Of a stretch of 64,000 nucleotides of DNA, positions 2,168-56,754 are shown piece after piece. Position numbers and translations under genes: made by a program. Every line of letters begins with the position of its first letter. Position 1 is the first letter of the stretch. Origin of the DNA: Picochlorum sp. 'celeri' (Eukaryota; Chlorophyta; Trebouxiophyceae); contig JAACMV010000004.1 of assembly GCA_010909725.1 (NCBI GenBank), positions 310,001-374,000 on the forward strand, read 5' to 3'. Below the pieces are notes generated by a model. It was not told the DNA's origin and searched no databases. It was given only the letters and a program-made list of their open reading frames with translations.

Positions 2168-5100
2168 TTATCCTGTGCGCTTGAGAAGGTACTCTAGAGC
2201 GAGTGCCAGTTTCTCAGCAACATGTTGTCGTCCTTGTCTGCTCATGAGGCATTCTGTATGGCGTTCATCCACTGTCAGCGATAATGGTCCCTTTGGATCG
2301 TCAACGTATGGTGTGGACGCATCGAGGAGGGACTTTCCGACCCTGTCTTTTGGAACGATGATGGCTGTTGGGCCTTCGTATGTGTCTGTTCCTACATGTG
2401 GTTGGATGCCCATGCGCTTTAATGAAGCTGCTCTGTCCAATGTGGCATACACGGCTGTTTCCCATGCAGCGACGGGAACGCTCGGATCTGAAGGTTTGAA
2501 TGAGGTGATAAACTTCAACTGCTGCGTTGGTGATCCAGCTCCTTGCACGAAATCAACGAATTCTCCGATGCTTGATTGGAGAGATCCAATTTCTTTGAGG
2601 AGGTAGAACAGACCATACCATGTCGTATCATGGAGCGGGATATTTGGTGGACTAATGCATCCATCCAGCAATATTAATCCTGTTTGCTTTCCAGAATTGT
2701 GAAGATGGCGTGCCATTGCCTGCGCAATCACACATCCGGTGACGCTGGTTCCTGCCAAGAGATATGGACCAGATGGCTGCATCTCAATCATAGCTGCGCA
2801 GTATGAAGCTGCCAGTTCTTCTGTATCGGTGCACTCTTCTGCATCTGGTCCCAAAGCAAGACCATAACATGGAACTCTGAGCATGGCTGCGAGCTCTTTC
2901 TGTGCTCCACTAATGTCACCTCGCTCAGAATGCGTCATCCACAAGGGGATTCGTGCAAGTGGGGCAGACGCCATTTGTGCTGGGGTGCCCGTTTTTCCAA
3001 TATGACGCAGAATATACCTTCTCTCTGGACACAATCTATTCAATGGAGAAACAACGCAGACTGTGCTGAGTGATCCAATATCCTCATCCATGCTATCTGG
3101 CTGTGGTGATACATCATGCATTCGTGGTGACATCAATGGAAGTGCGCTTACGCCTGTAGCTCTTTGCTCGGCATCTTTACGCCTCCAAATTGCCTCAAGT
3201 ATGTGGCGGGTCAATGTTGATGCTGCATGGTGATCCTTTCGGTTCAAATAGTGGAATGTGACTGGTTGTACGAGGAACCTGATTGGTTCCCAGACATTAT
3301 TTGGCCCCTTGATGATGTGCGCTGCGTCTTCGTGGTCCATTTCTGATATCTGTGAGATGACTTCAGAAGATGAGAATACCAGGGATTGTCCAGGGAAGAT
3401 ATCCACAGGAGAGTAGCTATCTGACACTGTCTTGTAGTATCCCAATCTCGATAAGGTGACATCAACCTTGACGTCCCATTCAGCAACTGAAAGATTTTCG
3501 GGCCTGAATGAAGCCAAGTAATCAAGCTGCTCATCGAATGCAGGCGTTTCTGCGAGACGTATCACAATCTCATCCAAAGGTGGAGCCTTTGGACCCATGG
3601 TCTCCAAAATCAAGGGATACAGCGCAACTGCTGCTTGGCATGTGTCCACAGCTGCCTCCTCAGAGAGTAGTTGGGACACTTGCGTATTGTCCTTGATCGT
3701 GTATAATCCTTCAAATAATGCCAGTGTACAGACATTGTCGTTGAGGCCATCCAGGTGAAGCGCAAGCTCATGTGCAAGCAGTCCGCCAAAGCCAACACCG
3801 CCAACAACAACAGGCTTGTTCATCGGGATTGTCCTCTGGAGTGCTTTCATCGCAACTGTGGCAAGTTCGTTCAGGTCGGGAGCTTCCCAGAGAAGGTTGT
3901 CTTGAGGCAGGTGAACAGCGAATGCCGGAATGTCGACATTGCTGAGTATAGTCTCAAGCCCACCCAAGGTTCCATTTGCTTCACAGCACACAATCAGGAG
4001 AGCCTCGACATCGCCTGAGCCTGTCTGCTCTTGCCACGCCTTTCCAGCTCTATTAATTGGAGATATTTGATCTTTTGAGGATCCGGTGAATGCACTGCCA
4101 ACGCCTTCTTCGGTTGCATATGGCATGGCAACCTCCAGTCTTCGTCTGAGACCAGGATCATCCACTCCCATCTTCTTCAGATAAGAATCAATGTCTCTAA
4201 TCTCATTCGCTGAAACGGAGTATTGCGGTTTGTCTTCTCTACTGATTGTTTCAGACCAACCAAACGGTCCCAGGACCGTTTTCAGGCCTGTAACAAGAAT
4301 ATTCATGTCTTCCAAGTCTTGTCTCAACAATGAGAAATGGTCTCCAGGCACATCAATGACCCTGAGATCCAAGCACCTTTCATACCAACAGGCACCGTGG
4401 GGATACGGCACGTTTGGTCCCTTCCGATCATCAAAGTATGTACAGACACCTGGAACGAATGCTCTGAAGTATACAACAGGAGACAGCAGGTGGTGATTCG
4501 AGAACTCATGACCTCTGAGGTCAGAAATCTGTGATCCCTGCTTTGTTACTAAAGCCACATATTCAATTTGCTCCTTTACCTCTTCAACACTCATGTTGGA
4601 GTCTCTCATGACACGCCAAATGGGTGCAAAGAACTCATACTTTTGATCCATTGTCATGCCTTTCCACTCATCTGATTCCTTTGGATGGGCGATGGAGGAT
4701 CCCATGCCCAGAGCGTCCCTTCCAAGGGCACCCAAGATCATCTCCATGAGCTCCAAGCAATCCTCATCAGTCGCTTCAGTTGCTTCAGGCTTCTGCTCTC
4801 TAATTTGTGGTTTCAATGGAGTATCCATGATCAGTACTAGTCCGACCTCTTTTCCCCAACTTTCCAGCACCATTGCAATCTCCACAGCAACTGCTCCTCC
4901 ATATGAATGTCCTCCAACCAAATAAGGCCCTTCAGGCTGAATCAAAACAATATCCTCGGCATTCTGAAGTGCTAATGCTTTCAGGTCCAAGTCATTGTCT
5001 TTGTCAAGCACGTAAATTGGTTGTGTACTCCATTGCAGGAACATGGAGAAGGCGAAATAAGCGGATTGTGCATTTGCAACACCTGGTGCAGCCAGGAACA

Positions 5101-8100
5101 GCGGCCTGGCCTGAGCTGGAGGGCGCAATGTCTTCATAAGTTTTGACACTTGGGGCTGTGGTGCTCGCACATCCCTTCGTCCCTTTGCGACATATGCTTC
5201 CTCCGAATCCTCATCTGTACCAGGTGACAATGCTTTTTCTTCTGAGCTTGTGACCACCCCATTAATGTATCCGACAATATCCTCTATTGACTGGTAGTCA
5301 TACAGAAGGGTCACTGGAAGCTCCAATCCTAAAGATTCAGCAAGGATTCTTCTCAGCTCCATACCTCCTCTAGAGTCCAGTCCTGCTGTCATTAAAGGCT
5401 CTTCTGGATGAATGGCGTGGCCAACAACCTGCTTAACTTCATTCATCACTTGGGATTGTATGTGAATCAAACGTTCCTCTTCTGTCATCAACAGCAGAGG
5501 ATGATCTGCTGGGATTTGGTCAATCTCATCCTCCTCGTTCTCTGCAGCTCGAGGTGTCTGCGCTGAGAGAGGTCCAGGTGATGTAGGAGGCAGATCATGT
5601 TCACCGACTATCAGATTCTTCAGCGTAACAGCACTGTCAGATCCTGAAGCTCTTGCATTCGTGACTGCCCAGGAATCTTCCTCAGAGAGATCCATTGATA
5701 TGCTTTCCATACGCTCGTGAGATCCCAGATTGAATGAGATATGCTCAATTGTCCTGACCCAGGTCAGTGGCGATTGGAGAGGTGCCATGTGACTCGCAGT
5801 GAGGGCGACCACAGCTTCAACAACGCATGAATCAACATGATTGTCCATTGACCTAGAATTATAGTGCAGACAAGAGACAGAAGACGCTTGTCCCCTATGA
5901 AGCAGTCCAGATAGGAGTGCTGATGGCTTGTGCAGTTTTGGAGCAGCAGCCGATCGTGCAGATGGTACTGACATCCTTGCAGCCATCACCTTTTGTAAGG
6001 AGTGGGTCACCTCCAAATGACCGGTCAAAGGCTTGATGAGAATTGACACTGTACTCTCATCTGCAGTCATTCTCTTACTGGGCCGAGGCAATGGTAGAGG
6101 AGCTGGGAACGTCGCTGCTGCCACTCCACTAGCAATCAATGAAGAATCTGAGACAAGCATTTCCACCCCTGCCATGGTGCATGTCAACAGTGTAGAAGAT
6201 AACAGATGTGATCTTCCGTAAATCTGGTTGCATAGATACTCGAGATTCTTCGCGGAATTGATTTGACTTTCGAAAGTCACTGATCCAGTATTATTCTTTG
6301 ATCGTCGCCTTACCCAGGCAACATCAAGCAGTTTTGCCACCCTTGGAACGACCCACATTCTCTGGCACTCCCAATTAACCACGTCGCAATTAGGAGAGAT
6401 CACGGTTATCCCTCCTATTCCTTTAATAACTGCATGTGCGTTTGTTCCCTGTGCACCAAATGAACTGACTCCCAAGATAGCCTCACCACGTGAGACATCT
6501 GATGGAGTACCTATCTTGCCACTCCTTGCTATCAAGACTTTACTGTCTCTGATTGCGCCATATACGTGTGGATTCAAGTGACGCAAATGAAGTGCTGGAG
6601 CCATGCAATTTCGCGTTGCAACTTGCATTGCTTCACACAGACCGACTGCACCAGCAGCCGACTCCTGGTGCCCTGTGTATCCTTTGACTGTTGCAAGCAT
6701 GAATGGCAAATACCTATGACGAGATAACGCTACCGCCGAAATAGCCCCTATTTCGATTGGATCTCCAAGACTAGTACCGTTAGAATGTAATTGAATTCCA
6801 TTGACATCCTCTGGTCTCATGGAGCTGGCATACCAAGCCTCTCTCAACAATTGTTGCTGTGCTGGACCATTAGGAGCTGTCAAAGAGCTAGCTCTTCCAT
6901 TCGTATTGACTGAGCTCCCGCTAATTACCGCGATAACAGCTTCTATATCTTTTTGAGGATAGTTGGAACCGAGAATCAGCGTTCTTGCTGCTTCTCCTCT
7001 GGCGTACCCATCGGCAGAGGCATCCAGAGTCTTGGAGCGCCCTTCTGGAGAGATCATCTGTGCCCTTGTTAACATGAGGGTAGATTCAGGGACTAAGCAC
7101 AGCAAGACTCCAGCAGAAATAGCAGATTCCATTCGGGATTCCCTAAATGCTGAACAAGCCATATGTGTGGCGACCAGAGATGCAGAACATGCTGTATCAA
7201 CGCTCACCGCAGGGCCCTTGGCAGCAAACACGTATGCCAGCCGCCCACTTGAGACGCTTGGGGAGGCAGATGTGAAGCTAAATGCATTGATTGGCTGCCC
7301 GTTTCGATGACTCAAAGATTCATAGTCAGTCGCCGCAATTCCAACAAAGGCACCTGCCTGCTTTCCAAATACAATCTCAATGCCACCTGCTGTAGTCAGA
7401 GCAGATAATGTCTGCATCAATAAAAGTCTCTGCTGTGGGTCCATGCCAACAGCTTCTGATCTCATAAGGCCAAATAATTCTGCATCGAATAACTCGACAT
7501 CTGGAACGAAAACACCAAATTGAGATGGAATATTTCCCTCCCCATCAACGAGGAGAGGGGAATTGACATCCCATCTCTCAATAGGTACTCTGATCGATGC
7601 ATCTCCTTGCACCCAATCCTGCAGAATCTCTGTTTGCCCAGACACTCCTAATACATTGATATCGGATCCTGAGAAGTTTGCATTGGCTACCAAAGCATCT
7701 TCTGCATCGCCAATCGGCCCACCGTCGCCACTCAATGCCTGGCTCAAAAATTCACTCATTGCGTCAATTGTGGGGTAGTCAAACACAAGTGTCGACGGCA
7801 ATTCAATCGAAAGCTCATCTTGAAGCTTTTGCTGCAATTCAGTTGCTCCTAAAGAATCAATTCCAGCTTCCATTAGAGGCTCGTCAGGCTTTACAGACTC
7901 GCCAACAATGGATTCAATTGCCTCTGTGACAATCAAACGAACAGTGTCCGGGTCAATTCCTGCCTGGACTGGCTTAGAAGCCTCCAAAACTCTATAATCT
8001 TGATCGAACACTGATGATGAGTAGTCCTGGGCACTCGGGCTGAGTATGAGAGGCGTGTATGGACTTCTTGGTGTCAATGCAGTTGAGCCTGGATCTGCCT

Positions 8101-11100
8101 TTGGTCTTTCAGTCAGCAGCCTCCTTGTCTCGACCTCACTGAGTGAAACTTTGCAAACGCCTTCTGCATTCACGGACTGCTCCACGTATCGTTCATCTTT
8201 GCTGAGAACACTTGAGGTCCATGCATCACTCAAACTGGTTTCAAGAGGAGAGGTCTCAATCATGCCAATTTTGGCAGCAACGCGGATAGTAGAATGGCTG
8301 AAATTATGCGCTGTGCACACAGTTCCAGACGATTCTGAAATTGCTGGGTGCATTCTGAATCCATTAGAATCGACTGCCGTTGTTGACACACATGCCAGAT
8401 TGGATTTGATCTTTGTTCCCTTTTCCATCACCGCACCAATGGTTGAGGACGTGCCTGGCTGCTTCTGCATCGGCTTCTCTTCAATGCTCGCTGCAGATGC
8501 ATAGAAATGCACTCTGTTTGAATGCGACAAAATCTCCATGGAACTTGTCGAGACATTGATCATCAAAATCAAGTTCACGCTCTGTAAAGCCTTCTCAATA
8601 AATATTGGTGCAGAGAACAAACCATCTTGCAGATACACACTTGATTTCTGGTTGAGAAGTGAAGATACTCCAGACGCTGAGCATTCAATCATTGATGAGG
8701 CCGATACAATGCAGCGCCCTTGGATCACGTGATCAAACATGAAACTTCCTCTTGACGAGACGAGAGTACAATTGAACATTGCTTGCTTTCCTCGCCTAGT
8801 TTTAAAGACAGATGCTGTGTGAAGAAGTGTGCTAGGGAGTGGTGCCACCCAGATCCTAGCATTCTTCCAAGGAAGGTCCCTCTTGGCCGCAATAGGGCCT
8901 GTATAGTTTGCCTTTCTAACAATGGCATGTGCATTGGTTCCTTGGAATGCAAAAGAGCTGATTCCAGTGTACAATCTGGAACCTTCAGCCATCCCACTGG
9001 CACACCTTGGAGCAAGCCAAAATTGCTGCTTTGTCTTCATGGCCTGCATTTCCATCACCGTTTCGATGTGACTATTTAGTTTGGATAAATGCGAGATTCC
9101 TTGGACAAATACTGCAGAAGCCGCTATACTAGCGTGCACTAATCCAGTTGCTCCAGCTGCTGCCTCTGTATGACCAATCCAGGCCTTTGCAGTGCTGGCA
9201 GAGACAAAGCTACGCCTAGATGAATGATCTACCAGCACAGCATTGGCTGCACCAAGTTCAATTGGATCGCCAAGAGGTGTACCAGTTCCATGCATTTGAA
9301 GGTTTGAGATCTCTCCAGGGAGAGTCTCGCTGAATCTTAGGCATGCCCTCATCACCTCAGACTGACTTGGCCCATTGGGTGCTGTTAGAGAGGCGGAGCT
9401 TCCATCCTGGTTGACTGCTGTACCTACCAAGACAGCTACTGCTTCTAACGAAGCATTTGAATCACTGACCGCATAGTACAAGACTGCTGCAGATTCACCT
9501 CTCACGTATCCGTCGGCAGCACTATCTAGAGTTTTACACCTTCCGTCAGCTGACAGCATTCCTGCCTTTTGGAACATTGCTGTGGAATCTGGATTCAGTA
9601 AGAGTCCGATACCAGCCGTCAAAGCCGCGGATGAGCTTCCTGACCAGATCGCGTTCGCTGCAACATGAGATCCGACCAAGGATGACGAACAAGCTGTATC
9701 TACACTCATTGCCTGCCCTTTGAACCCAAACGTGTATGAGATTCTACCACTAGCAACACTCAATGCACCACCTGTCGCACTGTAGGCACTCACTCCGCTG
9801 GTATGCCTTGCGACAACGTAATTATTGTACTCAGCGCTCGCAATTCCGACGGATACAGCCACATTGGACTGAGCACTGTAGCCTCTAGATTGAGAATCCG
9901 AGATGACTTCTTTCGACAGCTGCAAAATAATCCTTTGTTGGGCATCAATCAGGAGAGCTTCTGTGGAGGAGAAACCAAATGCCTCAATATCAAACTCATC
10001 GATATTCGACAAGTATCCACCGAACCGTGCAGGTGAGTAGTCCTTGGAAAGATACTCAACATCCCATCTCTCCACCGGAATTGTGGTAATGGCATCGATT
10101 GTGTTTATGCATGATATTGACATCGGCGTCTTGAATGCCGCAGACATCAAATGCAGTGGTGTATTGGATGATTTAAGATTGAGTTCCAGTGTTGGCTCAA
10201 TGTCTTTGACTTCCTCTGTGTCAGGGATTGAATCTGGAAGCTGAGTCTCAAGGAATGAAACCAACGCAGATGGTGTAGGATAGTCAAATACGAGGGTTCC
10301 TGGTAGCTGTAGACCCATACGAGACTCCAACGCATTCTTCAATTCAACTGCACCAAGAGAATCTAGACCAGCATTCATCAGTGATTCATCCATTCCAACA
10401 GTTGCTCCTGTGATGGATTGAATGGCATCTAAAACTTCAGTTTGGATTGCTTCCGTGGATTTAATCACACTTGTTTGAATACCGGCAGCTTTTCCACTTG
10501 AAGATTCTAGCTTCTTTTGAACAAAATTCTTAAAGAACACTGGTGGGCTAGATCCCAGTCGCTTCATCATCTTCTCCCAAATGAAGAGATTTGCTGAAGT
10601 AACCGGTTCGTTTGCTCTACAAGACACCACACTCTCCAAGACTCGCAGGCCTAAGTTCGGATCAAGCAGTCCCATACCAGTTCTTTCAACCCTGATTTGC
10701 GTAGAGGAATCATTTGCAGCCATACCAGAACCAGCCCAAGCGCCCCACTGGATGCTGTGAGAAGTCAAGCCAATTGCCTGGAGATGGGCTGACATTGCGT
10801 CAATGACTGCATTTGCAGCACTGTAGTTTGTCTGCCCAGGAGAGCCAAGTAAGGCAGCCACAGATGAAAACATAATTTGGAACGAAGTTGGGTGCTCCGT
10901 GGAGAACCTATTAATCAGGTTGACGCTCTCAACCTTAGCTCCGAACACCTGGGCAACTGACTTAATTGTCTGGGAACCAATGGTGCCATCCCTGAGTACT
11001 CCTCCAGCATGAACAATACCCAGAAGTTTACTGCAGTATATCTTCGAGGTATCTGCCCTGGTGGATGTGTCACAGGATGTTGACGTGCACATAGATCCAA

Positions 11101-47100: not shown

Positions 47101-50100
47101 GACTCACCCTTGTCATAAAACTCGGAGAAAATACCAGGATGCTCAAAATTCTTCAGATAGGTTTTCCAATCAAATCCATTGACTGTAAGCACTGGTCTTG
47201 GATGATTCATTGACAATGACAGGATGGACCTCATTGCCGACAGCCCTTGCTCAGCAGTTATCAAGCCCTGGCCAATCCTGTTAAGGCGCTTCAGAACAGA
47301 TTCAGATGCCATTCCTGATGAAGCCCAGGCTCCCCATTGAATCGCTTTCACATTGAATCCCATATTTTGAGCAGCCAGCGCTGAACTATCGAGACAGGAA
47401 TTCGCAGCTGCATAATTACCTTGTCCAGCGCCCCCCAGAAGGCTGGCAACAGAGGAGAAAAGTGTAAGATTCTCTATCGGCAATGCAGCGAAGTTTCCCT
47501 GAAGAATGGCAGTCTTGGGTGCAAAGACCTGCTTAAATGATGTAAGAGTCTGCTTTTCCAGCAATGAATCTCTTAATATACCGCTGGCATGCACAAAATT
47601 CACAGCGGGGGTGTTCTGAAGCAGGGCTTCAATATCCTCTGCACTGCTTGTGTCAACCAGGGCAACCATGATTTTCGCCCCAGAATCCATCAGCTGTTTC
47701 CATATAGAAGATACCTGAACTTTACCAGATCTACCAAGGAGATTAATTGCACAATTGGTGTATCTTCTGCTGATCCAATCGGTCAACATGACTCCAAGAC
47801 CACCAACACCACCAGATATAGTGAGAGTTGGATTTTGACCAAATCCATCCCTATCCCCCAAAGTATCCACTGTTGTCACAACTTTGCCAACATGAGTAGC
47901 TTGGGAAAGTTGACGCATTGCATTCGCAACGGATCCCATTGGATGGCTTATCTGCCGGAGTGGCTTGATCTGGCCAGTAGCCAATTCATTTGCAATCTTT
48001 TGTAGTGTGGAATTAAGGACTGATGGTGGCAGGAAATCTACAGCGAGCAGTGCATAGTTTATATCTCCTCTTTCCTGCTGGAATCTCGAGGTACTCCAGA
48101 TATCCCTTTACTGATTTCGACGAACCTTCCTCCACGGTTCAGGGATGCGACAGATGCTCCTATCATTCCACTGGAAGTAAGACTATTCAGAACAACGTCA
48201 GCACCACCTAGCATGCAAATATCCTCTGGCAAAGTTTGTATCTCGTGATCCAAGAACGTGTTTGACTCCCAGATTATGGAGAAGACTTCGCTTTCCTGGT
48301 CCACCGGCAGTACTGATAACTTCAGCTCCCATTGAATTTGCAATCTGTACACCAGCAAGGCCAACACCACCAGCAGATGCGTGAATCAAAACTTTTTCAC
48401 CTTTCTGCAGATTTGCGCTAGCATCAAACGCGATGTGAACTGTTGTGAAAAACAGTTGGTATAGTGGCTGCCTCGACAAAAGAAAGATTCGAGGGCATTT
48501 GGACAACCATTGCAGCTGGCCCTGCGACAGCTGTTCCCAGACAACCATGCGCCAAACCAAACACCGCATCCCCTCTCTTGAGATGAGCAACATTATCTCC
48601 AGTTTCCAAAACAACACCAGCACAGTCGCTTCCAGGAGGTCCTGGGTCCCCTGGATACATACCTAGCACGTTCAAGACATCTCTGAAATTGATTCCAACA
48701 GCTTTCACTGAAATGGATACGTCATTTGGACGGATCTTTGTTTGTTCAAAAGCTTGGCAGGCGAGGTTATTGAGAGATCCTCGTGGATTTGAACGAAGCT
48801 GCACCAAATCTTGTGATGGCATGAGGGCTCTGCTTCTCAAAAGCATTGGCTGGCTTAGTGAGTTTTGCCAGAGCTTAAGGGAGGCCTGCTTCCCACTCTG
48901 CAGCATGGGCATGCGAGCATCATTTTCATGTGTACTGGTCAGACTTTGTTTTGATCCTCTCCTTTCTGAGGCAAACACTCGCAAGAGTCCCTCAATAGCT
49001 GCTTCAGGATTCTTATCTCCCTGGCCAGGAGAAACAGATGATACATTAACACTGTCCATCATGCATGCATGCATGCTTTTCACCCCGTTTTGATCAATAC
49101 CCTGAATCACTGAAAGCATGGAAGCACAACCCAAATACGGGATTTCCTCACTAGCACAGATAGAGAATTTGGATTGGCTACCATCTTCATCTCCCAGGAC
49201 AACCACAGGATTGCTGGGCACTGAGGACTGATATTCCTGCTGTGCTGGTTCACAGATTTGGTGATACTCGAGTTCATAAAGATAGTCCGCTAAAGGCGCA
49301 GGCTTGACCTTTCTACCTGCTTTACCCATGAGTTTTGTTTCAATGTTCTGGATATAGGTAGAGGGCCCAAGTTGCTCATTTCCTGAGATTGAAAATGAAG
49401 ATGTGTCAAAGTCTGATGTTGGAACTATGTATTTTGAGGTCGTGGATGCAAAACAATACGTAGAATTGTTTATTTTAGCTCCTAATCCAAAACGCTCAAC
49501 CTTGACAGGGACTTTAGCCGGACAATTGGGGACTGATACTCCCAAATGCAGGCAGGCATCAGCTACAGAGGGTGGAACTCTATATGAATCAACTTCAACG
49601 CCACTGGGCATACGTAAGCACCCGACTGGACCTGATTCCGCAATTGCGTTCATACTGAATGCATTAAAACTCCTCAATAACGCCGCCTTGGGAGAATGTA
49701 CGGAGCTCGTCGCCATCTCTTTGATGTAATTGCCAGCTGCATGTGAAGTTAAGGCAGATCCTGATCTGCTCTCAAGGGTGCAGTTCCCATTCAATACATC
49801 CACTTGCATAATGAGGTCCGGAATCTTCTGTGATTCGATCAACGTGATGACCAACGGTGCACTGATCGTCACATCTTGGACATGCAGGTTTCCTTCCCCA
49901 TCGAACATGCTGAAGCCAGTAGCAAGCAAAATCTCGAGCATTGCAGTTGCAGGCAACAGAACTCGTCCTAAAACAACGTGATCATTTAAGTGATTTAATC
50001 TTTGCGCTGCTAGTGTGCCTTCAAGTCTAGCAGATCCAGATTTCCTCGTGAGCCCTGCAAAATTATGCAAGAAGGGACTTGGAGAGGGGAGAACCCAGTA

Positions 50101-53100
50101 CCTGGAGAATTCAAGATCCACGGTATCTTCCAAGCGTTTGAGCCCAGTGCAAACTTGGTTTTGTATCATTGCATGGGCATTGGTGCCTTGAAACGCAAAA
50201 GCACTGACTCCCCCGAAAGCAGAGGCGCGATTCGAACCGGTTGGCATGACCTGGCGAGGGCCAAATGCAGGTGTTTGCCCTCTTGACTCAAGCGTTGCGC
50301 TGACATGAGGGTTCATATTTCTCAACGACACGAATGGATCGATAGATACATCGCACATCATCAAAGTAAGTTTACTGAGTCCGACGATACCTGCAGCCGG
50401 TTCTGCATGCCCCATGAATGATTTAGCAGAAGTCAATTCCAATGGCGAAACCCGATCAGATGCCTTATTCAGCAGCACAGCCGTGGCAGCACCCAGTTCA
50501 ATAGGATCGCCAAGAGGCGTTCCAGTGCCATGCATTTGCAAATGCTTGATATCTCCAGCCGCCAATCCACCAGAAAGGAGTGAGCTCCTGATGACATCTT
50601 GCTGGCTTGGGCCATTAGGTGCAGTAAGGGCACTTGACCGACCATCCTGGTTGACTGCTGTACCCACCAAAAATGCTTTCACCCTCTGCGCATTATCTTT
50701 TCCATGGTTGGATTCAAGTATCATGGACATGGCGGCCTCTGCCCGCACATAGCCATCTGCAAACAAAGAATTGAAGCATGTTGGTGACACGACCTAATTT
50801 GCATAAACAATTGCAATTCCCTTCGCACCTGCTGAAGCATCCAAAGTTTTGCATCGACCGTCGTCAGCGAGCATTCCAGCCCTAAGACAAGCCCTCGTCC
50901 AGGAGTGAACCAATGCTAAGTTCGTTCCCATAGTGGCAGAAACTGTGCACAGTCCTTCCTGCATAGAGTTTGCTGCCAAATGTGTGCTGACAAGAGAGGA
51001 AGAGCAAGCTGTATCCACAGTCATAGCAGGCCCTTTAAGCCCAAAGGAGTACGAAATCCTTCCAGAAGTCACACTGAGATGTGCCCCCGTTGCATAGTAT
51101 GTGTTGAGGGCACTTCCTGTCTCGTAGGCAATTCTGGCGTAATCCAATTGAGAAACACCCACAAAAATCCCAGTGTGACGTGTGAACTCCCTCTCAATCA
51201 AAAACTCGTTCCACGAATGCAGAAAATATGTCAAAAGCAGTCTTTGCTGCGGGTCCATGAGGACTGCCTCAGCAGGGGAAATGTTGAATACCTTTGCATC
51301 CAAGAGATCTGCCCCTTCGATGAATGATCCGAATTGTAAATTCAATTCCTTGAAATTATCAGTCGGCGGTTGATCAATATCCCATCTCTCAAGAGGAACC
51401 TGTGTGATCCTGTCGTTACCTTTGTACGAGGTATGACTCAAATCACCCCCAGGAACAACACCTGCAATGGAAACAATCGAACAAATACCTGCAGTTACGG
51501 TAGAGGGCACCAAGGCACTGGGTTCGGGCGCATTATACTCCAATGTCTGACCAGAGACACTGCAGATATACTCCGATATTTCCCTAATAGTGGGATAGTC
51601 AAAAAGCAATGTTCCTGGAAGATCCTCACCAACAATGGCTTCGAGACTGGAGACCAACTGCACAGCCATTGTTGAATTCACTCCCATGCTCATCAGAGGT
51701 GCATCCACGTCGGGATTATCTTCGGATATTGCCTCTGAGATGATATTTTTGACGGATTCAATCACTTGACCTTGCATCTGCACATTGGAAATCCTTCCTT
51801 TGTTAGATGAATCTTTAGCAAATACACGTACCTTTGAAACACCTCTTGCAGTTGGCATCGACTCTCGCATCTGATCTGATTCGAGAGATAACTCCTTTTC
51901 AAAATACTCAACAAGTTCGTTGAGAGTTGGATAATCAAATATGACTGTCCCTGGGACACTGATGCCCAGGTTCTCCTCAAGAGCTCCTACAACTTGGACT
52001 GCCATTGTTGAGTTAACACCAGCTGACATAAATGGCTCTCCAGACGAGAGCTGCTCTACCACATCTTCTTGGAGCATCTTTGCCAAAGCTCCCAAGACAA
52101 GCCCGCGAATGTCTCGCTGAGGATGCTCAGCAGCTCCCACTTCTTCTGTGGATGAGTACAATATGGCAGCAAATGGTGGCACCTTTGTCCTGGCAGCCGA
52201 CAATGCTGTCCTCACAAGCCTGTCATTCTCACACTCAAACAAAGACGTTGGCAAGCACAGAAGAACCACATTCGCACTTGGCAGCAATGCCTTAAGCCTT
52301 AGCGATGCTTCATGGTCTGGTTTACTTAGGCAAAGTACAACCACATCCTGAATTCCAAGGTGACCAAGATTTTCCAGTACGCTCCAAGATGCTGCCAAGG
52401 ATTGTACCACCAAGACATAAGATGCGCCTTGAATGACACGTGGGCCAAAAGTGGACATGTCAGACTGCAGGTCAATTTGTTCCAAGCTGCCTCCAGCCAT
52501 CTTTGCGATATATTTCACCATGTCTGAGAGTCCCTTGGGAGCAACGAAGCTGGTTTTAGACGAGGAAACCTCCACCGGCTTGTCAGTTGAAAACATTTTT
52601 CTCAACTCGGTTTTCAAAATTTTCCCAGATCCTGTCGTCGGAAGAGCGTCCACAACATGCACGGTGATTGGCACCTTGTACTCTGCTAGACGCTCTCTGC
52701 ACCACACGACCAAATCTTTCCCAAGAGTGGAGCTAGTCACTGCTTCCGGCTTGACTGTAACAGCAGCGGTAACGAGCTCCCCCATAACCTTGTTCTCAAC
52801 CCCAAAAACAGCAGCCTGGTGCACAGCTGGATGATTGTGGAGAACATCCTCAACCTCTGTCGTGTAGACATTTTCACCCCCAACAAGAAGCATGTCTTTC
52901 TTCCTGTCAACCACACTGAGGTAGCCATTGGGGTGATGAAGAGCCAAATCTCCAGTATGGAACCATTCACCATCGAAAGCGTCTTCATTTGCTTCCTTCA
53001 AACCTCTGTATCCTGCGAAAACAGTTGGTCCAGAGATAATAACCTCACCAATACTCTTGCCATCCTGAGGAACATCCTGCAGATTTTCGTCCACAATGCG

Positions 53101-54261
53101 AACATTGATCAGCTTGAAAGGCCTTCCACTGGTGCATACAAGATCCAATTGCTGCTCTGGTGTCAGAGAATCCTTATCCTCGGGCAGAATACTCATAGAA
53201 ATCTTCCCACAGCACTCTGTCATTCCATACGAGACAAAAAACTCACACCCAAACAAAGCAATGGCTCGCATGACAATCGACTTTGACTGGGGAGAACCTC
53301 CACATGACAGCAGCCTGAGAGCAGAAAAGTCCACAACATCAGCAAGGGGGTTGTTCACCATCATCGCAACCATCGTCGAAGCAACGTTTGCAACTGAAAC
53401 GCATTCTGATTCCATCATAATCAATGCATCAGATGCAGAGAATACAGGCATGGTGACATGCCTGCCTCCAACCAAGGTAATTGCATATATAGCAAACACA
53501 TCAACCAAATGAAACATTGGAGCCATGTGGCCCCACACGTCCAATGAATTCAACTTCATTTCCTTCACAGTACCAATCGCATGATACACAACTATACGAT
53601 GGCTCAACTCAACAGGCTTTGGTTTTCCAGTAGTCCCAGATGTATAATACAAATGAAACGTGTCATCCAAAGAGTTTTCAGGCATATCAGCAAGTCCAAT
53701 AGCTGATCCTTTGGATGCAATGCACTTGTCAAACTCATAGCCCATATCTGATTCCTCCTGTGGCTGCTTGACCTCAGAGTCAACATGAACCCACACCATG
53801 TCCAAACTGGATCCAGTTTGTCCAATGACGGCTGCACGTGCTTCAATCAAAGCAGACGCGACTCCAGTATCAACGAAACACATTGTAGCTCCAGAATCCA
53901 AGAGAATGTATTCCAATTCTCTTGCAGCCAGGTTGATATTGAGATTGACAATGACAAGATGCAATGCTGCAGCTGCAAAGTGAATTTTCATCACAGCACT
54001 GCTATTACGACAATGAACGGCAATTGCATCTCCTCTTCTCAACCCTTTCTCATGCAACCACGAGGCTAATGCAGTTGCCTCCTGAAAAAGCTCTGCGTAC
54101 GTCAGGATTGAGTCATTTCCCCTATCAACAACAGCAATAGAGTCAGGGAAATGAATCGCAGCCAATTCCAAAATATGCCATGTATCATAATTACATGGAA
54201 CATCCGATTCCGTAGCAGATACACTCTGGGAGGGCTTGAGTTGCCCTTCCCCTGCCATCAT
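2168..54261 (-). CDS. giant multimodular trans-AT type I polyketide synthase
   Basis: One gene of about 52.1 kb, read from ATG 54261 (or the adjacent ATG 54258) to TAA at 2168-2170, encoding roughly 17,300 residues. The open frame extends upstream to a TTG at 54300, but the first two ATGs precede the ligase domain. Order: acyl ligase, two ACPs, then eleven KS-based modules, then three thioesterase-like domains. KS active sites appear as DTACSSS or close variants, followed by HGTGT and GHxE motifs. ACPs carry GLDSLG with the phosphopantetheine serine. No acyltransferase domain follows any KS, so malonyl transfer must come from a separate protein; this is known for algal multimodular PKSs. Three short introns are supported (33733-33805, 47040-47107, 50757-50828). 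Further frame breaks at 33.4-38.25, 39.5, 46.1-46.85 and 48.1-48.45 kb are probably consensus errors. The neighbours are housekeeping genes, so no wider cluster is visible. An alternative is that the breaks separate two or more genes, but domain order continues across all of them. Confidence 0.85.
2171..5110 (-). other. PKS C-terminus: three tandem thioesterase-like (alpha/beta hydrolase) domains
   Basis: Domain TE1, about 5110-4270, follows the last ACP and has an intact nucleophile elbow GGHSYGGAVA at about 4891-4915. TE2, about 4015-3250, has GGVGFGGLLAHELAL at about 3785-3810, where the nucleophile serine is replaced by phenylalanine. TE3, about 3000-2180, has AGTSVTGCVIAQAMA at about 2730-2750, which keeps a serine but not the closing glycine of GxSxG. 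A PKS thioesterase releases the chain by hydrolysis or cyclisation. On sequence, TE1 is the likely catalyst, TE2 is likely inactive and TE3 is uncertain. The repeated 'PSGPYLLAG'/'PEGPYLVGG' context before the serine in TE1 and TE3 supports common origin by duplication. Confidence 0.75.
5265..7570 (-). other. PKS module 11: KS, decayed DH-like region, ACP
   Basis: KS11, about 7570-6330, has the active cysteine in VDTACSASLVATHMA near 7190, but the usual HGTGT is HSNGTSLGDPIE near 6755-6795; the histidine is kept and the glycine-threonine changed. The following 700 bases encode a poorly conserved dehydratase-sized region with no HxxxGxxxxP motif. ACP11, about 5450-5265, has GLDSRG with the serine at about 5373. 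There is no ER or KR, so this module should leave a beta-keto group. Confidence 0.75.
7740..10090 (-). other. PKS module 10: KS, decayed DH, ACP
   Basis: KS10, about 10090-8880, has VDTACSSSLVGSHVA near 9700 and QMHGTGTPLGDPIELG near 9280. A dehydratase-like region follows (FMFDHVIQGRCIVSAS near 8720), in which the histidine is kept but the proline of HxxxGxxxxP is serine, and the rest is eroded. ACP10, about 7960-7740, has EAGIDSLGATELQ. There is no ketoreductase or enoylreductase between them. This is the second consecutive non-reducing module before the thioesterases. Confidence 0.75.
10230..14890 (-). other. PKS module 9: KS-DH-ER-KR-ACP
   Basis: KS9, about 14890-13640, is unlike the others: it starts with a canonical-looking IVISGMSMRFAG segment, has TNTACSSSLVAYHLA near 14370, and ASHGTGTPLGDPIET. 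DH9 (about 13550-12700) has DHQINGSAILPGAAY and VLDNAFQLGA, so both halves of the dehydratase site look intact. ER9 (12225-11290) has HAAAGGVGLAAIQ for NADPH binding. KR9 (11270-10570) has TGGMGTLG and FSSVAALLGSPGQTNYSAAN with the serine and tyrosine. ACP9 is at about 10450-10230. Full reduction is predicted. Confidence 0.82.
14960..19780 (-). other. PKS module 8: KS-DH-ER-KR-ACP-ACP
   Basis: KS8 (about 19780-18620) has IDTACSSSMVGMHMA near 19370. DH8 has SHIVSGNSVFPGAGY and VLDCTLQLGG. ER8 (17230-16290) has AAAGGVGLAALQV. KR8 (16270-15540) has TGGTGSLG and FSSVASLLGAPGQLNYSGAN. Two very similar ACPs follow (about 15440-15240 and 15150-14960), both with EAGLDSLGAVELRN and FGLELP, separated by a short linker. 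The tandem carriers look like a recent duplication. Confidence 0.82.
19890..24380 (-). other. PKS module 7: KS-DH-ER-KR-ACP
   Basis: KS7 (about 24380-23220) has IDTACSASLVATHIA near 23990. DH7 has DHTVLEKNIFPGAGYFEA, where the glycine of HxxxGxxxxP is glutamate, and VFDSFLQLGQ. ER7 (21900-20960) has GAAGGVGLAAMQV. KR7 (20930-20170) has TGGTGALG and FSSMASLLGSIGQMNYSAAN. ACP7 is at about 20110-19890 with AAGLDSLGAVELRN. Full reduction is predicted, provided that the changed DH motif still works. Confidence 0.8.
24500..27860 (-). other. PKS module 6: KS, decayed DH, KR, ACP
   Basis: KS6 (about 27860-26690) has VDTACSSSLVSLHAA near 27450. The dehydratase-sized region (about 26560-25880) has no catalytic histidine motif: the equivalent stretch reads NINDGVKVNGEPIVSLGA. 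No ER is present. KR6 (25500-24760) has TGGSGALAG and YSSIASMMGSPGQISYSAAN. ACP6 is at about 24730-24500 with ASGLDSLGAVELRN. The module should stop at a beta-hydroxyl. Confidence 0.78.
28010..32440 (-). other. PKS module 5: KS-DH-ER-KR-ACP (contains cassette copy A)
   Basis: KS5 (about 32440-31260) has VDTACSSSLVSMHMA near 32000. DH5 has WDHQVNGKPIFPGAGYF and SLDNCLQLAA. ER5 (30010-29090) has HGAAGGVGLAAIQ. KR5 (29060-28330) has TGGLGTLG and FSSVASLLGSPGQMNYSSAN. ACP5 (28220-28010) has SAGLDSLSAVEFRN. ER5 and most of KR5 lie in the G+C-rich 1385-bp cassette that is almost identical in module 2. Confidence 0.82.
28626..30010 (-). repeat. G+C-rich ER-KR cassette, copy A (module 5)
   Basis: 1385 bp that align base for base, without net indel, to copy B at 42738-44122 (constant offset 14112). 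Four substitutions were noted by eye, so identity is about 99.7%. Sampled lines are 58-73% G+C against about 40-50% in neighbouring PKS sequence. It encodes the whole ER and the front half of KR in frame. No terminal inverted repeats or target duplications are seen, so this is a duplicated or converted coding segment, not a transposon. Confidence 0.9.
32589..32783 (-). repeat. ACP tandem duplication, copy 2 (module 4)
   Basis: 195 bp encoding an ACP core, repeated at 32928-33122 with an offset of 339 and only a couple of base differences noted. Both carry AAGLDSLGTVELKN. Confidence 0.88.
32928..33122 (-). repeat. ACP tandem duplication, copy 1 (module 4)
   Basis: Partner of 32589-32783. The 144-bp linker between them encodes a charged stretch with an arginine run (DRRRRRK). 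Confidence 0.88.
33733..33805 (-). other. PKS intron in KR4
   Basis: 73 nt with donor GTATGT and acceptor TTTCTGCTTGCAG after a long T-run. Splicing joins ...SSSKPVM to GLIHSGGVLSDA in phase 0, restoring the KR sequence. Size matches the other introns. Confidence 0.85.
34226..34910 (-). repeat. ER cassette, copy C (module 4), indel-rich
   Basis: About 685 bp matching about 29229-29919 of copy A and the same part of copy B. It covers the N-terminal two-thirds of ER. Differences are mostly single-base insertions or deletions, several in homopolymers, with few substitutions. The match ends sharply at both sides and module-specific ER sequence resumes. Confidence 0.88.
37690..37930 (-). other. 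degenerate ACP-like segment between modules 3 and 4
   Basis: After the two ACPs of module 3 there is a further carrier-sized segment with the helical pattern of an ACP (STINSVLRRQLSPSD, then FVRALAARLGVVLPPDML, then STPEQLVQYLM). Where GLDSL should be it reads AADETAQ, so the phosphopantetheine serine is missing. It is either a dead ACP or a docking-like linker. Confidence 0.45.
37960..41760 (-). other. PKS module 3: KS-DH-KR-ACP-ACP (no ER)
   Basis: KS3 (about 41760-40570) has VETACSSSLVALHTS near 41320 and QMHGTGTPLGDPIEVG. DH3 has MDHKVMNRILVPGAAF, with asparagine replacing the glycine of HxxxGxxxxP, and QIDCCLQLGA. KR3 (39290-38540) has ITGGTGSLGSLVAN and FSSVASLIGSAGQANYSAAN. No ER lies between them. 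Two ACPs follow (38420-38230 and about 38130-37960). A one-base frame break lies near 39.53 kb and others near 38.24 and 38.04 kb. Predicted output is an alkene, or a hydroxyl if DH3 is weak. Confidence 0.75.
41890..46600 (-). other. PKS module 2: KS-DH-ER-KR-ACP-ACP (contains cassette copy B)
   Basis: KS2 (about 46600-45400) is frame-broken at its N-terminal third (46.1-46.6 kb), then reads normally through TQMFKKAGMLSADGRCK and THGTGTGLGDPIEIG. DH2 has FFDHKVLDQILFPGAGF, with aspartate in place of the motif glycine. ER2 (44120-43200) and the front of KR2 are copy B of the G+C-rich cassette. KR2 continues with the module-specific SPGQANYSVANSWLD. Two distinct ACPs follow, about 42330-42150 (ASGLDSLASVEFKN) and 42090-41890 (AAGLDSLGAVELQN). 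Full reduction is predicted. Confidence 0.75.
42738..44122 (-). repeat. G+C-rich ER-KR cassette, copy B (module 2)
   Basis: Partner of copy A at 28626-30010, same length, four base differences noted. The boundaries fall inside coding sequence: on one side in the KR after FSSVASLLGSPGQ, on the other just before HLMPVPRGALNNL. Beyond these points the two modules diverge at once. Confidence 0.9.
46108..46850 (-). other. second patch of frame breaks (KS2 start, ACP1 end)
   Basis: At least four frame changes in about 740 bases. ACP1 reads AGLDSLGSVEFAN in one frame and its continuation (CQQLLCLTT... out of frame for FDYP) in the next; a T-run one base too long near 46763-46768 causes another shift. 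KS2 motifs such as FGAFMHGIEQFDAAG and AVAMDPQHR are intact in the intermediate frame. Probable consensus error. Confidence 0.6.
47040..47107 (-). other. PKS intron in the KR1-ACP1 linker
   Basis: 68 nt, donor GTGAGT, acceptor TTTTGTAG. Splicing joins ...EFYDK to GTQEVKG with the glycine codon split, keeping the frame. Confidence 0.85.
50757..50828 (-). other. PKS intron in KS1
   Basis: 72 nt, donor GTGCGA, acceptor TTTGTTTGCAG. Splicing restores the invariant KS segment LDASADGYVRAEA exactly, with the aspartate codon split. Confidence 0.92.
51560..52120 (-). other. PKS loading carrier domains: two ACPs with GVNS motif
   Basis: Two carriers lie between the ligase and KS1, at about 52120-51890 and 51770-51560. 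Both have GVNSTMAVQ where the extension modules have GLDSLG, so the serine that takes phosphopantetheine is kept and the preceding aspartate is asparagine. Both end in the usual PGT(V/L)(I/L)FDYPT segment. They should receive the starter acyl group from the adjoining ligase. Confidence 0.75.
52590..54261 (-). other. PKS loading domain: acyl-CoA/fatty acyl-AMP ligase
   Basis: About 560 residues of the AMP-forming (ANL) superfamily. Visible motifs: YYTSGTTGKPKPVELSHR (ATP-binding loop), SYGMTECCGK, EWFHTGDLALHHPNG, DRKKDMLLVGGENVYTTEVE and PTTGSGKILKTELRK with the C-terminal catalytic lysine. It activates a carboxylic acid as the adenylate and passes it to the loading ACPs. The sequence looks closer to fatty-acid/coumarate CoA ligases than to amino-acid adenylation domains; which acid it takes cannot be read from the motifs. 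Confidence 0.85.
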
Positions 54262-55575: not shown

Positions 55576-56436
55576 TCATGCAGTCGTAGCTACATCGCCC
55601 TCCCCTTTGGCTGCTACAAGCTGTTTAATCTTACTGATGGCGACAGATGGCTGCAGATGCTTTGGACACACGGCAGTGCAGTTGTTGATTGTGTGACATC
55701 TGTACAACTTGTACTGGTCATCCAAATCTGCGAGCCGCTGCTCGGTGAAATCATCTCTACTATCAATGATCCATCTATACGCGTTCAGTAGAACGGCTGG
55801 GCCAAGATATTTATCCGACGCCCACCAATAGGATGGGCATGATGTGGAACAGCAGGCACACAGGATGCATTCATACAGTCCATCCAGCTTTGCCCTGTCT
55901 TCTTTGCTCTGCAGATTCTCCTTACCAGGCTCCGGCGGAGTCGTCTTCTGTAGATATGGCTTGATACTTTTATACTGTGCGTAAAAGTTGGACATATCCA
56001 CCACCAAATCCTTGACCACAAACATGTGTGGGAGGGGTGCCACCCTTGTCACTTTGGAGACGTCCTTCTCCACCCGAGTGAGGCATGCCAAGCCATTCGT
56101 TCCGTCAATGTTCATGGCACATGAACCACAAATACCCTCTCTACAAGATCGACGCAGGGCCAGCGTGGAATCCTGTTCATCTTTAATCTTGAGCAACACA
56201 TCCAACATCATCGGTCCACACGAGTTCAGGTCAACCTTGTAACTCTGATATTTGGGTTTGTCCTCATTTTCTGGATCCCATCTGTATATTAAAAATTCTT
56301 TTTCTACCACGGGTTTCTTTTCCGTTCCAACGGAATACTGCTGCATGGATGAGTGCGTTACGCCTCTGAGTGACCAGAGGCGTGAGTCGGACAAAAGCCC
56401 TCGTCGCTTGGATACAGTTTGCAGTAATGATTGCAT
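55576..56436 (-). CDS. SDHB: succinate dehydrogenase iron-sulfur subunit, mitochondrial
   Basis: 286 residues from ATG 56436; the open frame extends to a TTG at 56460 but the ATG fits better. An N-terminal basic presequence (about 1-40) precedes the conserved core from [11 protein letters not shown]. The 2Fe-2S cluster cysteines are in [10 protein letters not shown] and the later GLACL. The 4Fe-4S and 3Fe-4S cysteines are in [18 protein letters not shown] and [17 protein letters not shown]. The protein carries electrons from the flavoprotein to ubiquinone in respiratory complex II and the citric acid cycle. Length and motif spacing match the eukaryotic family. The gene diverges from the acidic-protein gene on its right. 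Confidence 0.96.
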
Positions 56437-56754
56437 CCTTTCTAACAAAACATTCTTCAATAGAAATGGCCAAGGGTCTGCTGAGTGCCACGCTCGTATG
56501 TGTGATGCCTTGGCCCTAGGGTCTACCTATTGAAGAGGATGCTTGATGGGAGATGATTGTTCTTGGACAATTCATCGACATGGCGCCCCATCATGGATGC
56601 ATGTTTCGTATTTGTTATTACATACACTAAAAGGTTTATTATTAAAAAGCCAATGCTGCGACCATGGTGCATGCGTGGTGTGAGACTGGGTACACCATGC
56701 AGCAGGCATGGCTGGTCGAGCCAGATGTTCTTCGATTCAGTACATTGCAGTGTG

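What the first reader, a model, noticed from the sequence alone, without database searches (positions are those of the whole stretch)
2168..54261. One 52-kb gene for an eleven-module trans-AT polyketide synthase in a green alga
Eleven ketosynthases, seven enoylreductases, nine ketoreductases, a ligase loading domain and three thioesterase-like domains lie on one strand in one continuous domain order, predicting a protein of about 17,300 residues. No acyltransferase domain is present. Trans-AT architecture of algal multimodular PKSs is established, but this domain string and its product are, as far as I can tell, uncharacterised.
Basis: partly seen in the sequence, partly recalled or inferred. 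Interest (0 to 1): 0.88.

Follow-up and report, generated by a model that had tools for sequence, protein, structure and literature searches.

The report
Giant green-alga polyketide synthase gene
A tiny marine green alga carries one 52,000-letter gene for an eleven-step assembly line that builds a long fatty molecule, probably for its wall; such giant genes are already known in green algae, but the helper enzyme, the shortened sister gene and the module swapping seen here give new things to test.

Summary
The minus strand from 54261 to 2168 encodes one predicted 17,281-residue protein: ligase loading domain, 11 KS, 9 KR, 7 ER, 17 ACP, three tandem thioesterase-like domains, no AT. It needs only three introns (72, 68, 72 bp); the last exon is 31.6 kb. 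The window's other frame breaks are mostly single-base indels that the second assembly copy lacks: sequencing errors. The assembly fits Picochlorum celeri. The enzyme is of a known kind, the chlorophyte 10-11-module trans-AT synthase (Chlamydomonas PKS1 type); its two unreduced last modules and possible pyrone product are in print (PMC7073580). Not seen in my literature searches: (1) a sister gene with the same loading unit and modules 1-3, then only a terminal module; (2) a roughly 10-kb tract of modules 1-3 nearly identical between the genes (dS about 0.02) while their ends differ (dS 0.6-1.5), pointing to gene conversion; (3) a middle thioesterase with its Ser replaced by Gly in 11 of 11 readable sequences; (4) a strong trans-AT candidate, an ankyrin-malonyltransferase fusion widespread in green algae.

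The parts
2168..54261 (-). whole gene (PKS-A), ATG to stop; predicted 17,281 aa after splicing
   Evidence: frame continuous, no stop in the spliced model
50829..54261 (-). exon 1 (3,433 bp): AMP-ligase, two loading ACPs, first half of KS1
50757..50828 (-). intron 1 (72 bp, GTGCGA...TTTGCAG, holds an in-frame TAG); its removal restores the KS motif DASADGY
   Evidence: one TAG inside this KS in all four copies, C4, C30, C3, C23
47108..50756 (-). exon 2: rest of KS1, DH, ER, KR of module 1 (window frame broken by indels; copy C30 is open)
47040..47107 (-). intron 2 (68 bp, GTGAGT...TTTTGTAG), same sequence in the sister gene on C3
33806..47039 (-). exon 3: ACP of module 1 to first half of KR4 (window frame broken by indels; copy C30 is open for 4,435 codons)
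33733..33805 (-). intron 3 (72 bp in C30, 73 in the window), inside KR4
2168..33732 (-). exon 4, 31.6 kb: second half of KR4 to the end (open frame 33499-2171 in the window)
52537..54162 (-). loading ligase (PF00501 + PF13193), closest in profile to long-chain-fatty-acid-CoA ligases
31421..32446 (-). KS5
24989..27883 (-). KS6 to KR6: module with KR but no ER and no DH motifs
7745..10117 (-). module 10: KS10, degenerate DH, ACP; no KR or ER
5264..7606 (-). module 11: KS11 with HSNGT motif and ACP17 (DSRGG); no DH, ER or KR found
4214..5104 (-). TE1 (end approximate), GHSYGG with later Asp and His
3134..4093 (-). TE2, thioesterase-like with Ser replaced by Gly (GVGFGG)
   Evidence: (25.0 bits, cut-off 26.4)
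2171..3043 (-). TE3, GTSVTG
38500..49500 (-). tract at least 98.4% identical per 500 bp (gaps left out) to the sister gene on C3 (modules 1-3)
28623..30010 (-). ER-KR tract of module 5, 99.6% identical to that of module 2 (42735-44122), compared window against C30

Best explanation
This is the Picochlorum celeri member of the chlorophyte giant trans-AT modular type I PKS kind (Chlamydomonas PKS1 type). The N-terminal ligase adenylates a carboxylic acid, most likely a long-chain fatty acid, and loads it on the tandem ACPs. Malonyl units are placed on every ACP by an AT supplied in trans, most likely the ankyrin-malonyltransferase fusion at C3:1172794, and the ACPs are primed by the Sfp-like phosphopantetheinyl transferase at C4:460580. 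Eleven extensions follow: modules 1, 2, 4, 5, 7, 8 and 9 fully reduce, module 3 leaves a double bond, module 6 leaves a hydroxyl, and modules 10 and 11 leave ketones. The chain (starter plus 22 carbons, 3,5-dioxo-13-hydroxy-18-ene) is released by TE1 and/or TE3 as a 4-hydroxy-6-alkyl-2-pyrone or a diketo acid, and serves as a wall or surface lipid. SHOWN by sequence: the domain order, absence of AT, active-site motifs, intron structure, conservation of the C-terminal half in relatives. INFERRED: starter, trans-AT partner, product, role.
For: Domain order and counts. KS Cys-His-His readable in all 11 KS: 10 of 11 by pattern, KS11 by reading (DTACSAS, HSNGT, KGYTGH). KR Ser and Tyr-Asn motifs in 9 of 9; both DH motifs in M1-M5 and M7-M9, with the Gly of HxxxGxxxxP changed in M2, M3 and M7; absent or broken in M6, M10 and M11. 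KS tree: KS7-KS11 pair by position with KS of other algae; KS9- and KS10-like KS follow each other in Haematococcus P0138, Trebouxia P0130 and P0137. P0001 keeps the order M7-M11-TE1-TE2-TE3 at 62% over 7,432 columns. Two KR-less last modules are plain in 6 of 13 relatives (P0001, P0002, P0129, P0135, P0136, P0137). Only two AT genes found in the genome, no type III PKS found. Low dN/dS between PKS-A and its sister: 0.08-0.24 for ligase, terminal KS, TE1 and TE2. Published: PMC7073580 (section 2.2.1 read) makes the same pyrone proposal for this family; PMC6912462 (passage) reports the wall phenotype of the Chlamydomonas pks1 mutant.
Against: No product, transcript or protein was seen. Modules 1-6 have no relative from another species in my data except part of module 6 in P0002, so their order is untested by comparison. 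Of the other 7 relatives, P0128 and P0131-P0134 start too late to show module 10, P0130 shows two KS with no KR but no ACP between them, and P0138 shows only one KR-less KS before its TE (gene models may be partial). The place of the Pavlova-type terminal KS (P0131, P0133) beside KS11 has support of only 0.2. Picochlorum zygospores are not documented in what I read, so a zygote-wall role may not carry over. The HSNGT motif of KS11 and the altered DH motifs could mean skipped steps. The starter cannot be read from the ligase: its best NCBIfam hit (long-chain-fatty-acid-CoA ligase, 419.7 bits) is under that model's cut-off of 476, and the second of the two best PDB hits is a feruloyl-CoA synthetase. 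The ankyrin-AT also occurs in rows whose labels I read as Mesostigma and Chlorokybus and in non-photosynthetic Prototheca, so it may have another main duty. In P. renovo, genes named as PKS fell in high salt (PMC6811619, passages), which says nothing direct on wall function.
Confidence: 0.85

Rival explanations
1. The locus is a decaying or multi-gene remnant: the frame breaks are real mutations or the string is several genes.
For: The window frame is broken within 33.3-38.3 and 46.0-48.5 kb and the copy C30 within 11.4-24.9 kb.
Against: In the gene the two copies differ by 258 indels, 246 of them of one base, and by 43 mismatches, clustered in patches; each break apart from the introns is open in the other copy. 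In the clean stretches (9.4, 8.4, 7.7 and 5.8 kb) there are 4 mismatches and 3 indels in all. PMC7225527 states that no short-read polishing was done. dN/dS against the sister gene is low, and a relative has 7,398 C-terminal residues as one predicted protein.
Confidence: 0.06
2. The product is a diffusible bioactive polyketide rather than a wall or surface lipid.
For: Modular PKSs often make such compounds (general knowledge); the genome holds three more loci with clusters of KS, C3/C23, C8/C17 and C1/C21 (C1/C21 only counted).
Against: Mostly fully reducing modules with a fatty-acid-type ligase predict a long aliphatic chain; the family member with a phenotype is needed for the zygospore wall (PMC6912462, passage).
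Confidence: 0.2
3. The trans-AT is the plastid-type FabD at C7:1111599-1112532, shared with fatty acid synthesis, not the ankyrin fusion.
For: Both match FabD (TIGR00128); the two exons of this one score 202.6 and 84.9 bits, while the ankyrin fusion scores 249.8, under the cut-off of 260.9.
Against: In the seven relatives of the ankyrin fusion that I read the protein starts almost at the repeats, with nothing like a transit peptide by eye, so it should share the cytosol with the PKS. The true start of the P. celeri protein was not settled (opens it at a TTG), and targeting of neither was tested.
Confidence: 0.35
4. It is a fatty-acid or PUFA synthase working iteratively.
For: Reducing modules and tandem ACPs.
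Against: Eleven KS of different clades, those of modules 7-11 conserved by position across algae, and modules of different reduction level.
Confidence: 0.03

Closest known systems
Chlamydomonas reinhardtii PKS1 (CHLRE_10g449750v5) and the conserved chlorophyte megasynthase (PMC7073580; PMC4661987)
   Same: N-terminal adenylation/ligase domain, 11 KS, no AT, reducing modules, two last modules without reduction, thioesterase end, terminal KS with the changed motif (HANGT there, HSNGT here).
   Different: I could not compare sequences (not held; the PKS1 paper itself is not held). Here the KS-ACP end is followed by three TE-like domains, the last exon is 31.6 kb, and the organism has a shortened sister gene; how many TE domains Chlamydomonas PKS1 has I could not see.
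Chlorella variabilis CvaPKS1 (PMC4661987)
   Same: Chlorella relative, about 12 modules, N-terminal ligase, trans-AT.
   Different: 1.2 MDa subunit there; 17,281 residues here (roughly 1.8 MDa by estimate).
PKS models from Myrmecia (P0129), Trebouxia (P0130), Apatococcus (P0135), Pedinophyceae (P0136), Haematococcus (P0138), Pavlova lutheri (P0132, P0133)
   Same: Terminal KS-ACP-TE cassette. Over PKS-A, its sister and all 13 relatives examined, the terminal KS has HSNGT or HANGT in 13 of 15 (not found in P0136, P0138) and the last ACP has DSRxxxE in 14 of 15 (not in P0138).
   Different: 34-59% identity to the query stretch over 23-95% of it for these seven; most are partial gene models.
Modular PKS clusters listed for Picochlorum oculate UTEXLB1998 and P. 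soloecismus DOE101 (PMC10794256, one passage seen)
   Same: Same genus, modular PKS.
   Different: Only table rows were seen; no domain order to compare.
Prymnesium PKZILLA toxin synthases (recalled, not looked up)
   Same: Giant single-gene algal PKS.
   Different: Far larger and in a haptophyte; no evidence here of a toxin.

Membership tests
Chlorophyte giant trans-AT type I PKS (CrePKS1 type) | N-terminal AMP-ligase/adenylation domain followed by ACP | tested here: met
   PF00501 4.9e-71 and two ACPs
Chlorophyte giant trans-AT type I PKS (CrePKS1 type) | 10-11 KS modules in one gene | tested here: met
   11 KS in one spliced frame; single transcript not tested
Chlorophyte giant trans-AT type I PKS (CrePKS1 type) | no integrated AT | tested here: met
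Chlorophyte giant trans-AT type I PKS (CrePKS1 type) | last two modules lack reducing domains | tested here: met
Chlorophyte giant trans-AT type I PKS (CrePKS1 type) | terminal KS with changed HGTGT motif | tested here: met
   HSNGT; HANGT in CrePKS1 per PMC4661987 (passage)
Chlorophyte giant trans-AT type I PKS (CrePKS1 type) | direct sequence orthology with CrePKS1 | not tested
   CrePKS1 sequence not held; nearest test is Haematococcus P0138 in the KS tree
Chlorophyte giant trans-AT type I PKS (CrePKS1 type) | role in zygospore wall | not testable with these tools
   needs a mutant
cis-AT modular PKS | AT domain in each module | tested here: not met
Bacterial trans-AT PKS | KS that group with bacterial trans-AT KS | not tested
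   the tree held only two outgroup proteins, P0003 and P0139
PUFA synthase | one iterative module with tandem ACPs (recalled) | tested here: not met
   eleven modules of different make-up
FabD malonyltransferase (for the trans-AT candidate) | TIGR00128 above its cut-off | tested here: inconclusive
   249.8 bits against a cut-off of 260.9, over residues 236-528; PF00698 met

The most novel reading that the evidence does not exclude
P. celeri runs a long and a short assembly line that share one loading unit and the same first three modules, kept alike by gene conversion between chromosomes, and end in the same terminal cassette. The two make a matched pair of wall lipids of starter+22 and starter+8 carbons. 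Both are fed by a dedicated cytosolic ankyrin-malonyltransferase whose ankyrin repeats dock on the PKS. Whole modules thus move between eukaryotic assembly lines by gene conversion, and the Ser-less TE2 is a conserved non-catalytic part of the release unit.
Probability: 0.25. Interest if true: 0.68.

Novelty: new member of a known kind. Interest (0 to 1): 0.45.

Why it matters
As of 2020 the product of this green-algal enzyme family had not been isolated (PMC7073580). P. celeri is small-genomed, diploid and, by the titles of two papers in the listing (PMC10808502, PMC12301381), editable with Cas9, so it could be a good place to find that product. The report gives a corrected gene model, a predicted mass class, a named candidate for the missing acyltransferase, and a shortened sister enzyme that could serve as a simpler test case. 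The near-identical three-module tract is a natural experiment in module exchange, which PKS engineers try to copy.

Tried and rejected
Introns as the cause of the breaks at 33-38 and 46-48 kb (other than introns 2 and 3): rejected, copy C30 is open there. In-frame TAG at 50794 as a stop, recoding or pseudogene sign: rejected, it lies in a 72-bp GT-AG intron. Low difference between the copies (4 mismatches in 31.3 kb of clean stretches, against 0.8% SNPs genome-wide in PMC7225527) as loss of heterozygosity: not claimed, because the assembly was written in pseudohap form, which can copy one unphased sequence into both phases (my reading). That the A/B tract is an assembly artefact: thought unlikely, since the two loci differ by substitutions and have different flanks, but mixed read mapping may have raised the identity. 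My own idea that the two unreduced last modules make a pyrone turned out to be in print, so I do not count it as new. Structure model of the module-11 linker failed (mean pLDDT 35.7): unused. Model of TE2-TE3 was fair (70.4) and the listed Foldseek hits are thioesterase domains or proteins that hold one, but the table does not say which of the two domains matched, so it supports the fold only in general. The domain profiles were trained on pieces of this same protein that Pfam had marked, so the counts rest on Pfam as well. dS and dN were computed by a plain Nei-Gojobori count of my own; values above 1 are near saturation. Literature searches for the ankyrin-malonyltransferase, PKS gene conversion in green algae and tandem thioesterases showed nothing on point in the listed titles and abstracts (12 of 13, 4 of 4, 8 of 231 and 7 of 7 papers listed); of these I read parts of PMC4661987, PMC7073580 and passages of PMC12633428 only. 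No search was aimed at a shortened sister PKS beyond. Of the 15 papers listed for Picochlorum and PKS I read passages of five. A scan for promoter- and terminator-like sites upstream uses bacterial consensus and gave nothing of use. The KS cluster on C1/C21 was only counted, not read.
Full report
WHERE IT IS. The window is contig C4:310001-374000 of a genome of 27,412,692 bases in 30 contigs. PMC7225527 (first of two parts read) describes the phased diploid genome of Picochlorum celeri as 27.43 Mb in two sets of 15 scaffolds, 46% G+C, assembled from PacBio reads, polished with long reads only, contigs output in pseudohap form. I take it to be P. celeri; the record itself is unnamed. C30 is the other phase of C4.

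ONE GENE, THREE INTRONS, MANY SEQUENCING ERRORS. Window and C30 align at 99.2% over 61 kb with 295 gaps and 136 mismatches. Inside the gene there are 258 indels, 246 of one base, and 43 mismatches, nearly all indels in three patches: 11.4-24.9 kb (166 indels), 33.3-38.3 kb (77) and 46.0-48.5 kb (14). In the first patch the window is open and C30 broken; in the other two it is the reverse. Between patches the copies are almost identical. These are therefore assembly errors, not introns. Three breaks are shared and are true introns: 50828-50757 (72 bp, with an in-frame TAG; its removal restores the KS motif DASADGY), 47107-47040 (68 bp; also in the sister gene) and 33805-33733 (72 bp in C30, 73 in the window, inside KR4). 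Reading each stretch from the copy that is open, the spliced frame has 17,281 codons and no stop. Exon 4 is 31.6 kb long.

DOMAINS. Pfam on 19 pieces and profiles trained on its hits give: ligase-ACP-ACP; M1 KS-DH-ER-KR-ACP; M2 KS-DH-ER-KR-ACP-ACP; M3 KS-DH-KR-ACP-ACP; M4 KS-DH-ER-KR-ACP-ACP; M5 KS-DH-ER-KR-ACP; M6 KS-KR-ACP; M7 KS-DH-ER-KR-ACP; M8 KS-DH-ER-KR-ACP-ACP; M9 KS-DH-ER-KR-ACP; M10 KS-(dead DH)-ACP; M11 KS-ACP; TE1-TE2-TE3. That is 11 KS, 7 ER, 9 KR and 17 ACP. No AT: none in the pieces, and a six-frame search of the whole genome finds AT at two other loci only (the same search rings in 10 of 14 control genomes). Active sites: the KS triad is readable in all 11, KR Ser and Tyr-Asn motifs in 9 of 9; the DH His and Asp motifs are present in M1-M5 and M7-M9 (Gly of HxxxGxxxxP changed in M2, M3, M7), broken or absent in M6, M10, M11. 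TE1 keeps GHSYGG and the later Asp and His; TE2 reads GVGFGG; TE3 reads GTSVTG with Asp and His (motifs judged by eye from recalled consensus). TE2 scores 25.0 bits for Pfam Thioesterase, just below the cut-off of 26.4. A fair AlphaFold model of TE2-TE3 (pLDDT 70.4) matches solved thioesterase domains.

RELATIVES. Two searches with the C-terminal part (7 and 37 hits) gave 13 algal or alga-like proteins that I examined (P0001, P0002, P0128-P0138); the other hits are mostly bacterial PKS or NRPS with short matches. P0001 has the order M7-M11-TE1-TE2-TE3 at 62% over 7,432 columns; P0002 has KR-only M6, M7, M8, then a KS9-like KS joined to the end of module 10, then M11-TE1-TE2. Counting PKS-A, its sister and these 13, HSNGT or HANGT occurs in the terminal KS of 13 of 15 (not found in P0136 and P0138) and DSRxxxE in the last ACP of 14 of 15 (not in P0138). 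Two KR-less last modules are plain in 6 of 13 relatives; P0128 and P0131-P0134 start too late to tell, P0130 lacks a visible ACP between its last two KS, and P0138 shows one KR-less KS only. The Ser of TE2 is Gly in 11 of 11 sequences where the place could be read (PKS-A, sister, P0001, P0002, P0128, P0130-P0134, P0136); in P0129, P0135, P0137 and P0138 no TE2 could be aligned at that place. The KS tree (49 KS; FastTree supports) pairs KS7 to KS11 of PKS-A with the KS at the same place in relatives, with supports from 0.73 to 1.0 for most groups but 0.2 for the Pavlova-type KS beside KS11. So the order of modules 7-11 is old and inherited; for modules 1-5 I have no relatives from other species.

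THE SISTER GENE. C3 and C23 carry, on the plus strand near C3:959.8-981 kb, ligase-ACP-ACP, M1, M2, M3 (two clear ACPs and one weak), then a KR-less module with HSNGT KS, ACP, TE1 and TE2. Its last KS is sister to KS11 of PKS-A (support 0.857). Compared with PKS-A it lacks modules 4-10 and TE3. Its exon 1 has a frame change between the two loading ACPs in both phases, which I did not resolve; it may be an intron, an error or a defect, so I cannot say that the sister gene works. Divergence is a mosaic: dS 0.63 in the ligase, 0.04-0.09 in KS1 and DH1, 0.004-0.025 from ER1 to KR3, 0.2-0.3 in the ACPs of module 3, and 1.3-1.5 in the terminal KS and TEs. So two old paralogues share a young tract of about 10 kb that covers most of three modules. 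Gene conversion between chromosomes is the plain reading. The ER-KR of modules 2 and 5 are 99.6% identical over 1,388 bp, compared window against C30. dN/dS is 0.11 (ligase), 0.08 (terminal KS), 0.14 (TE1) and 0.24 (TE2), so even the Ser-less TE2 is kept.

THE MISSING ACYLTRANSFERASE. The search found two AT genes, each in both phases. One, at C7, is split by an intron and is FabD-like. The other, at C3:1172794, is a 539-residue fusion of ankyrin repeats and a malonyltransferase. Of the best 120 of 7,890 hits listed (P0008-P0127), 105 carry an ankyrin Pfam domain beside the AT and 15 the AT alone; those with both include Chlorella, Micractinium, Parachlorella, Auxenochlorella, Prototheca, Trebouxia, Bryopsis, Dunaliella and Chlamydomonas by name, and Tetraselmis, Mesostigma and Chlorokybus by my reading of labels; the named Coccomyxa row has the AT alone. 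The seven I read begin almost at the repeats, with nothing like a transit peptide by eye. I propose it as the trans-AT; co-occurrence with the PKS was not tested. One phosphopantetheinyl transferase gene lies at C4:460580; I read it as Sfp-like from motifs recalled.

WHAT IT MAKES. By collinearity the chain is starter+22 carbons, 3,5-dioxo-13-hydroxy-18-enoyl, open to closure as a 4-hydroxy-6-alkyl-2-pyrone. PMC7073580 (section 2.2.1 read) already proposes a hydroxypyrone from the two unreduced last modules of the Chlamydomonas enzyme, and calls the 11-module trans-AT PKS a chlorophyte feature (passage). PMC6912462 (passage) reports that the Chlamydomonas pks1 mutant lacks normal zygospore wall structures. 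No type III PKS was found in the genome (the same search rings in 4 of 14 controls), so no plant-type pyrone synthase is in sight. The starter is open: long-chain acyl-CoA ligases are the best profile match, under cut-off.

VERDICT. The enzyme is a new member of a known kind. The fresh and testable points are the sister gene, the young three-module tract, the conserved Ser-less thioesterase and the ankyrin-AT.

Noticed in passing
G000:C3:959800-981000 and C23:939700-960900: Shortened sister PKS with the same loading unit and modules 1-3 and one terminal module; frame change in exon 1 between the two loading ACPs in both phases.
   Followed up: partly
G000:C8:145000-176212 (and C17), C1:106744-126802 (and C21): Two further clusters of KS; C8 holds nine KS with several KRs and one clear ER, and seven of its KS sit on long branches among those of PKS-A in the tree. 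C1/C21 was only counted.
   Followed up: partly
G000:C3:1172794-1173654 and C23:1151200-1152060: Ankyrin repeat-malonyltransferase fusion, widespread in green algae; nothing on it in the listings of two searches.
   Followed up: partly
window 55579-56526: Upstream neighbour on the same strand has 2Fe-2S and 4Fe-4S domains as in a succinate dehydrogenase iron-sulphur subunit (name recalled).
   Followed up: no
window 62325-63836: Protein kinase open frame on the plus strand; 58637-59971 has a weak bZIP match.
   Followed up: no
window 2168-54261 versus flanks: The two phases are almost identical in the gene (4 mismatches in 31.3 kb of clean stretches) but differ in the flank (32 mismatches in 54.3-60.6 kb); probably an unphased stretch copied to both phases.
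   Followed up: partly
P0002, residues 4427-5233: In this relative a KS9-like KS is joined directly to the end of module 10, as if one module had been lost by a deletion between two modules.
   Followed up: no
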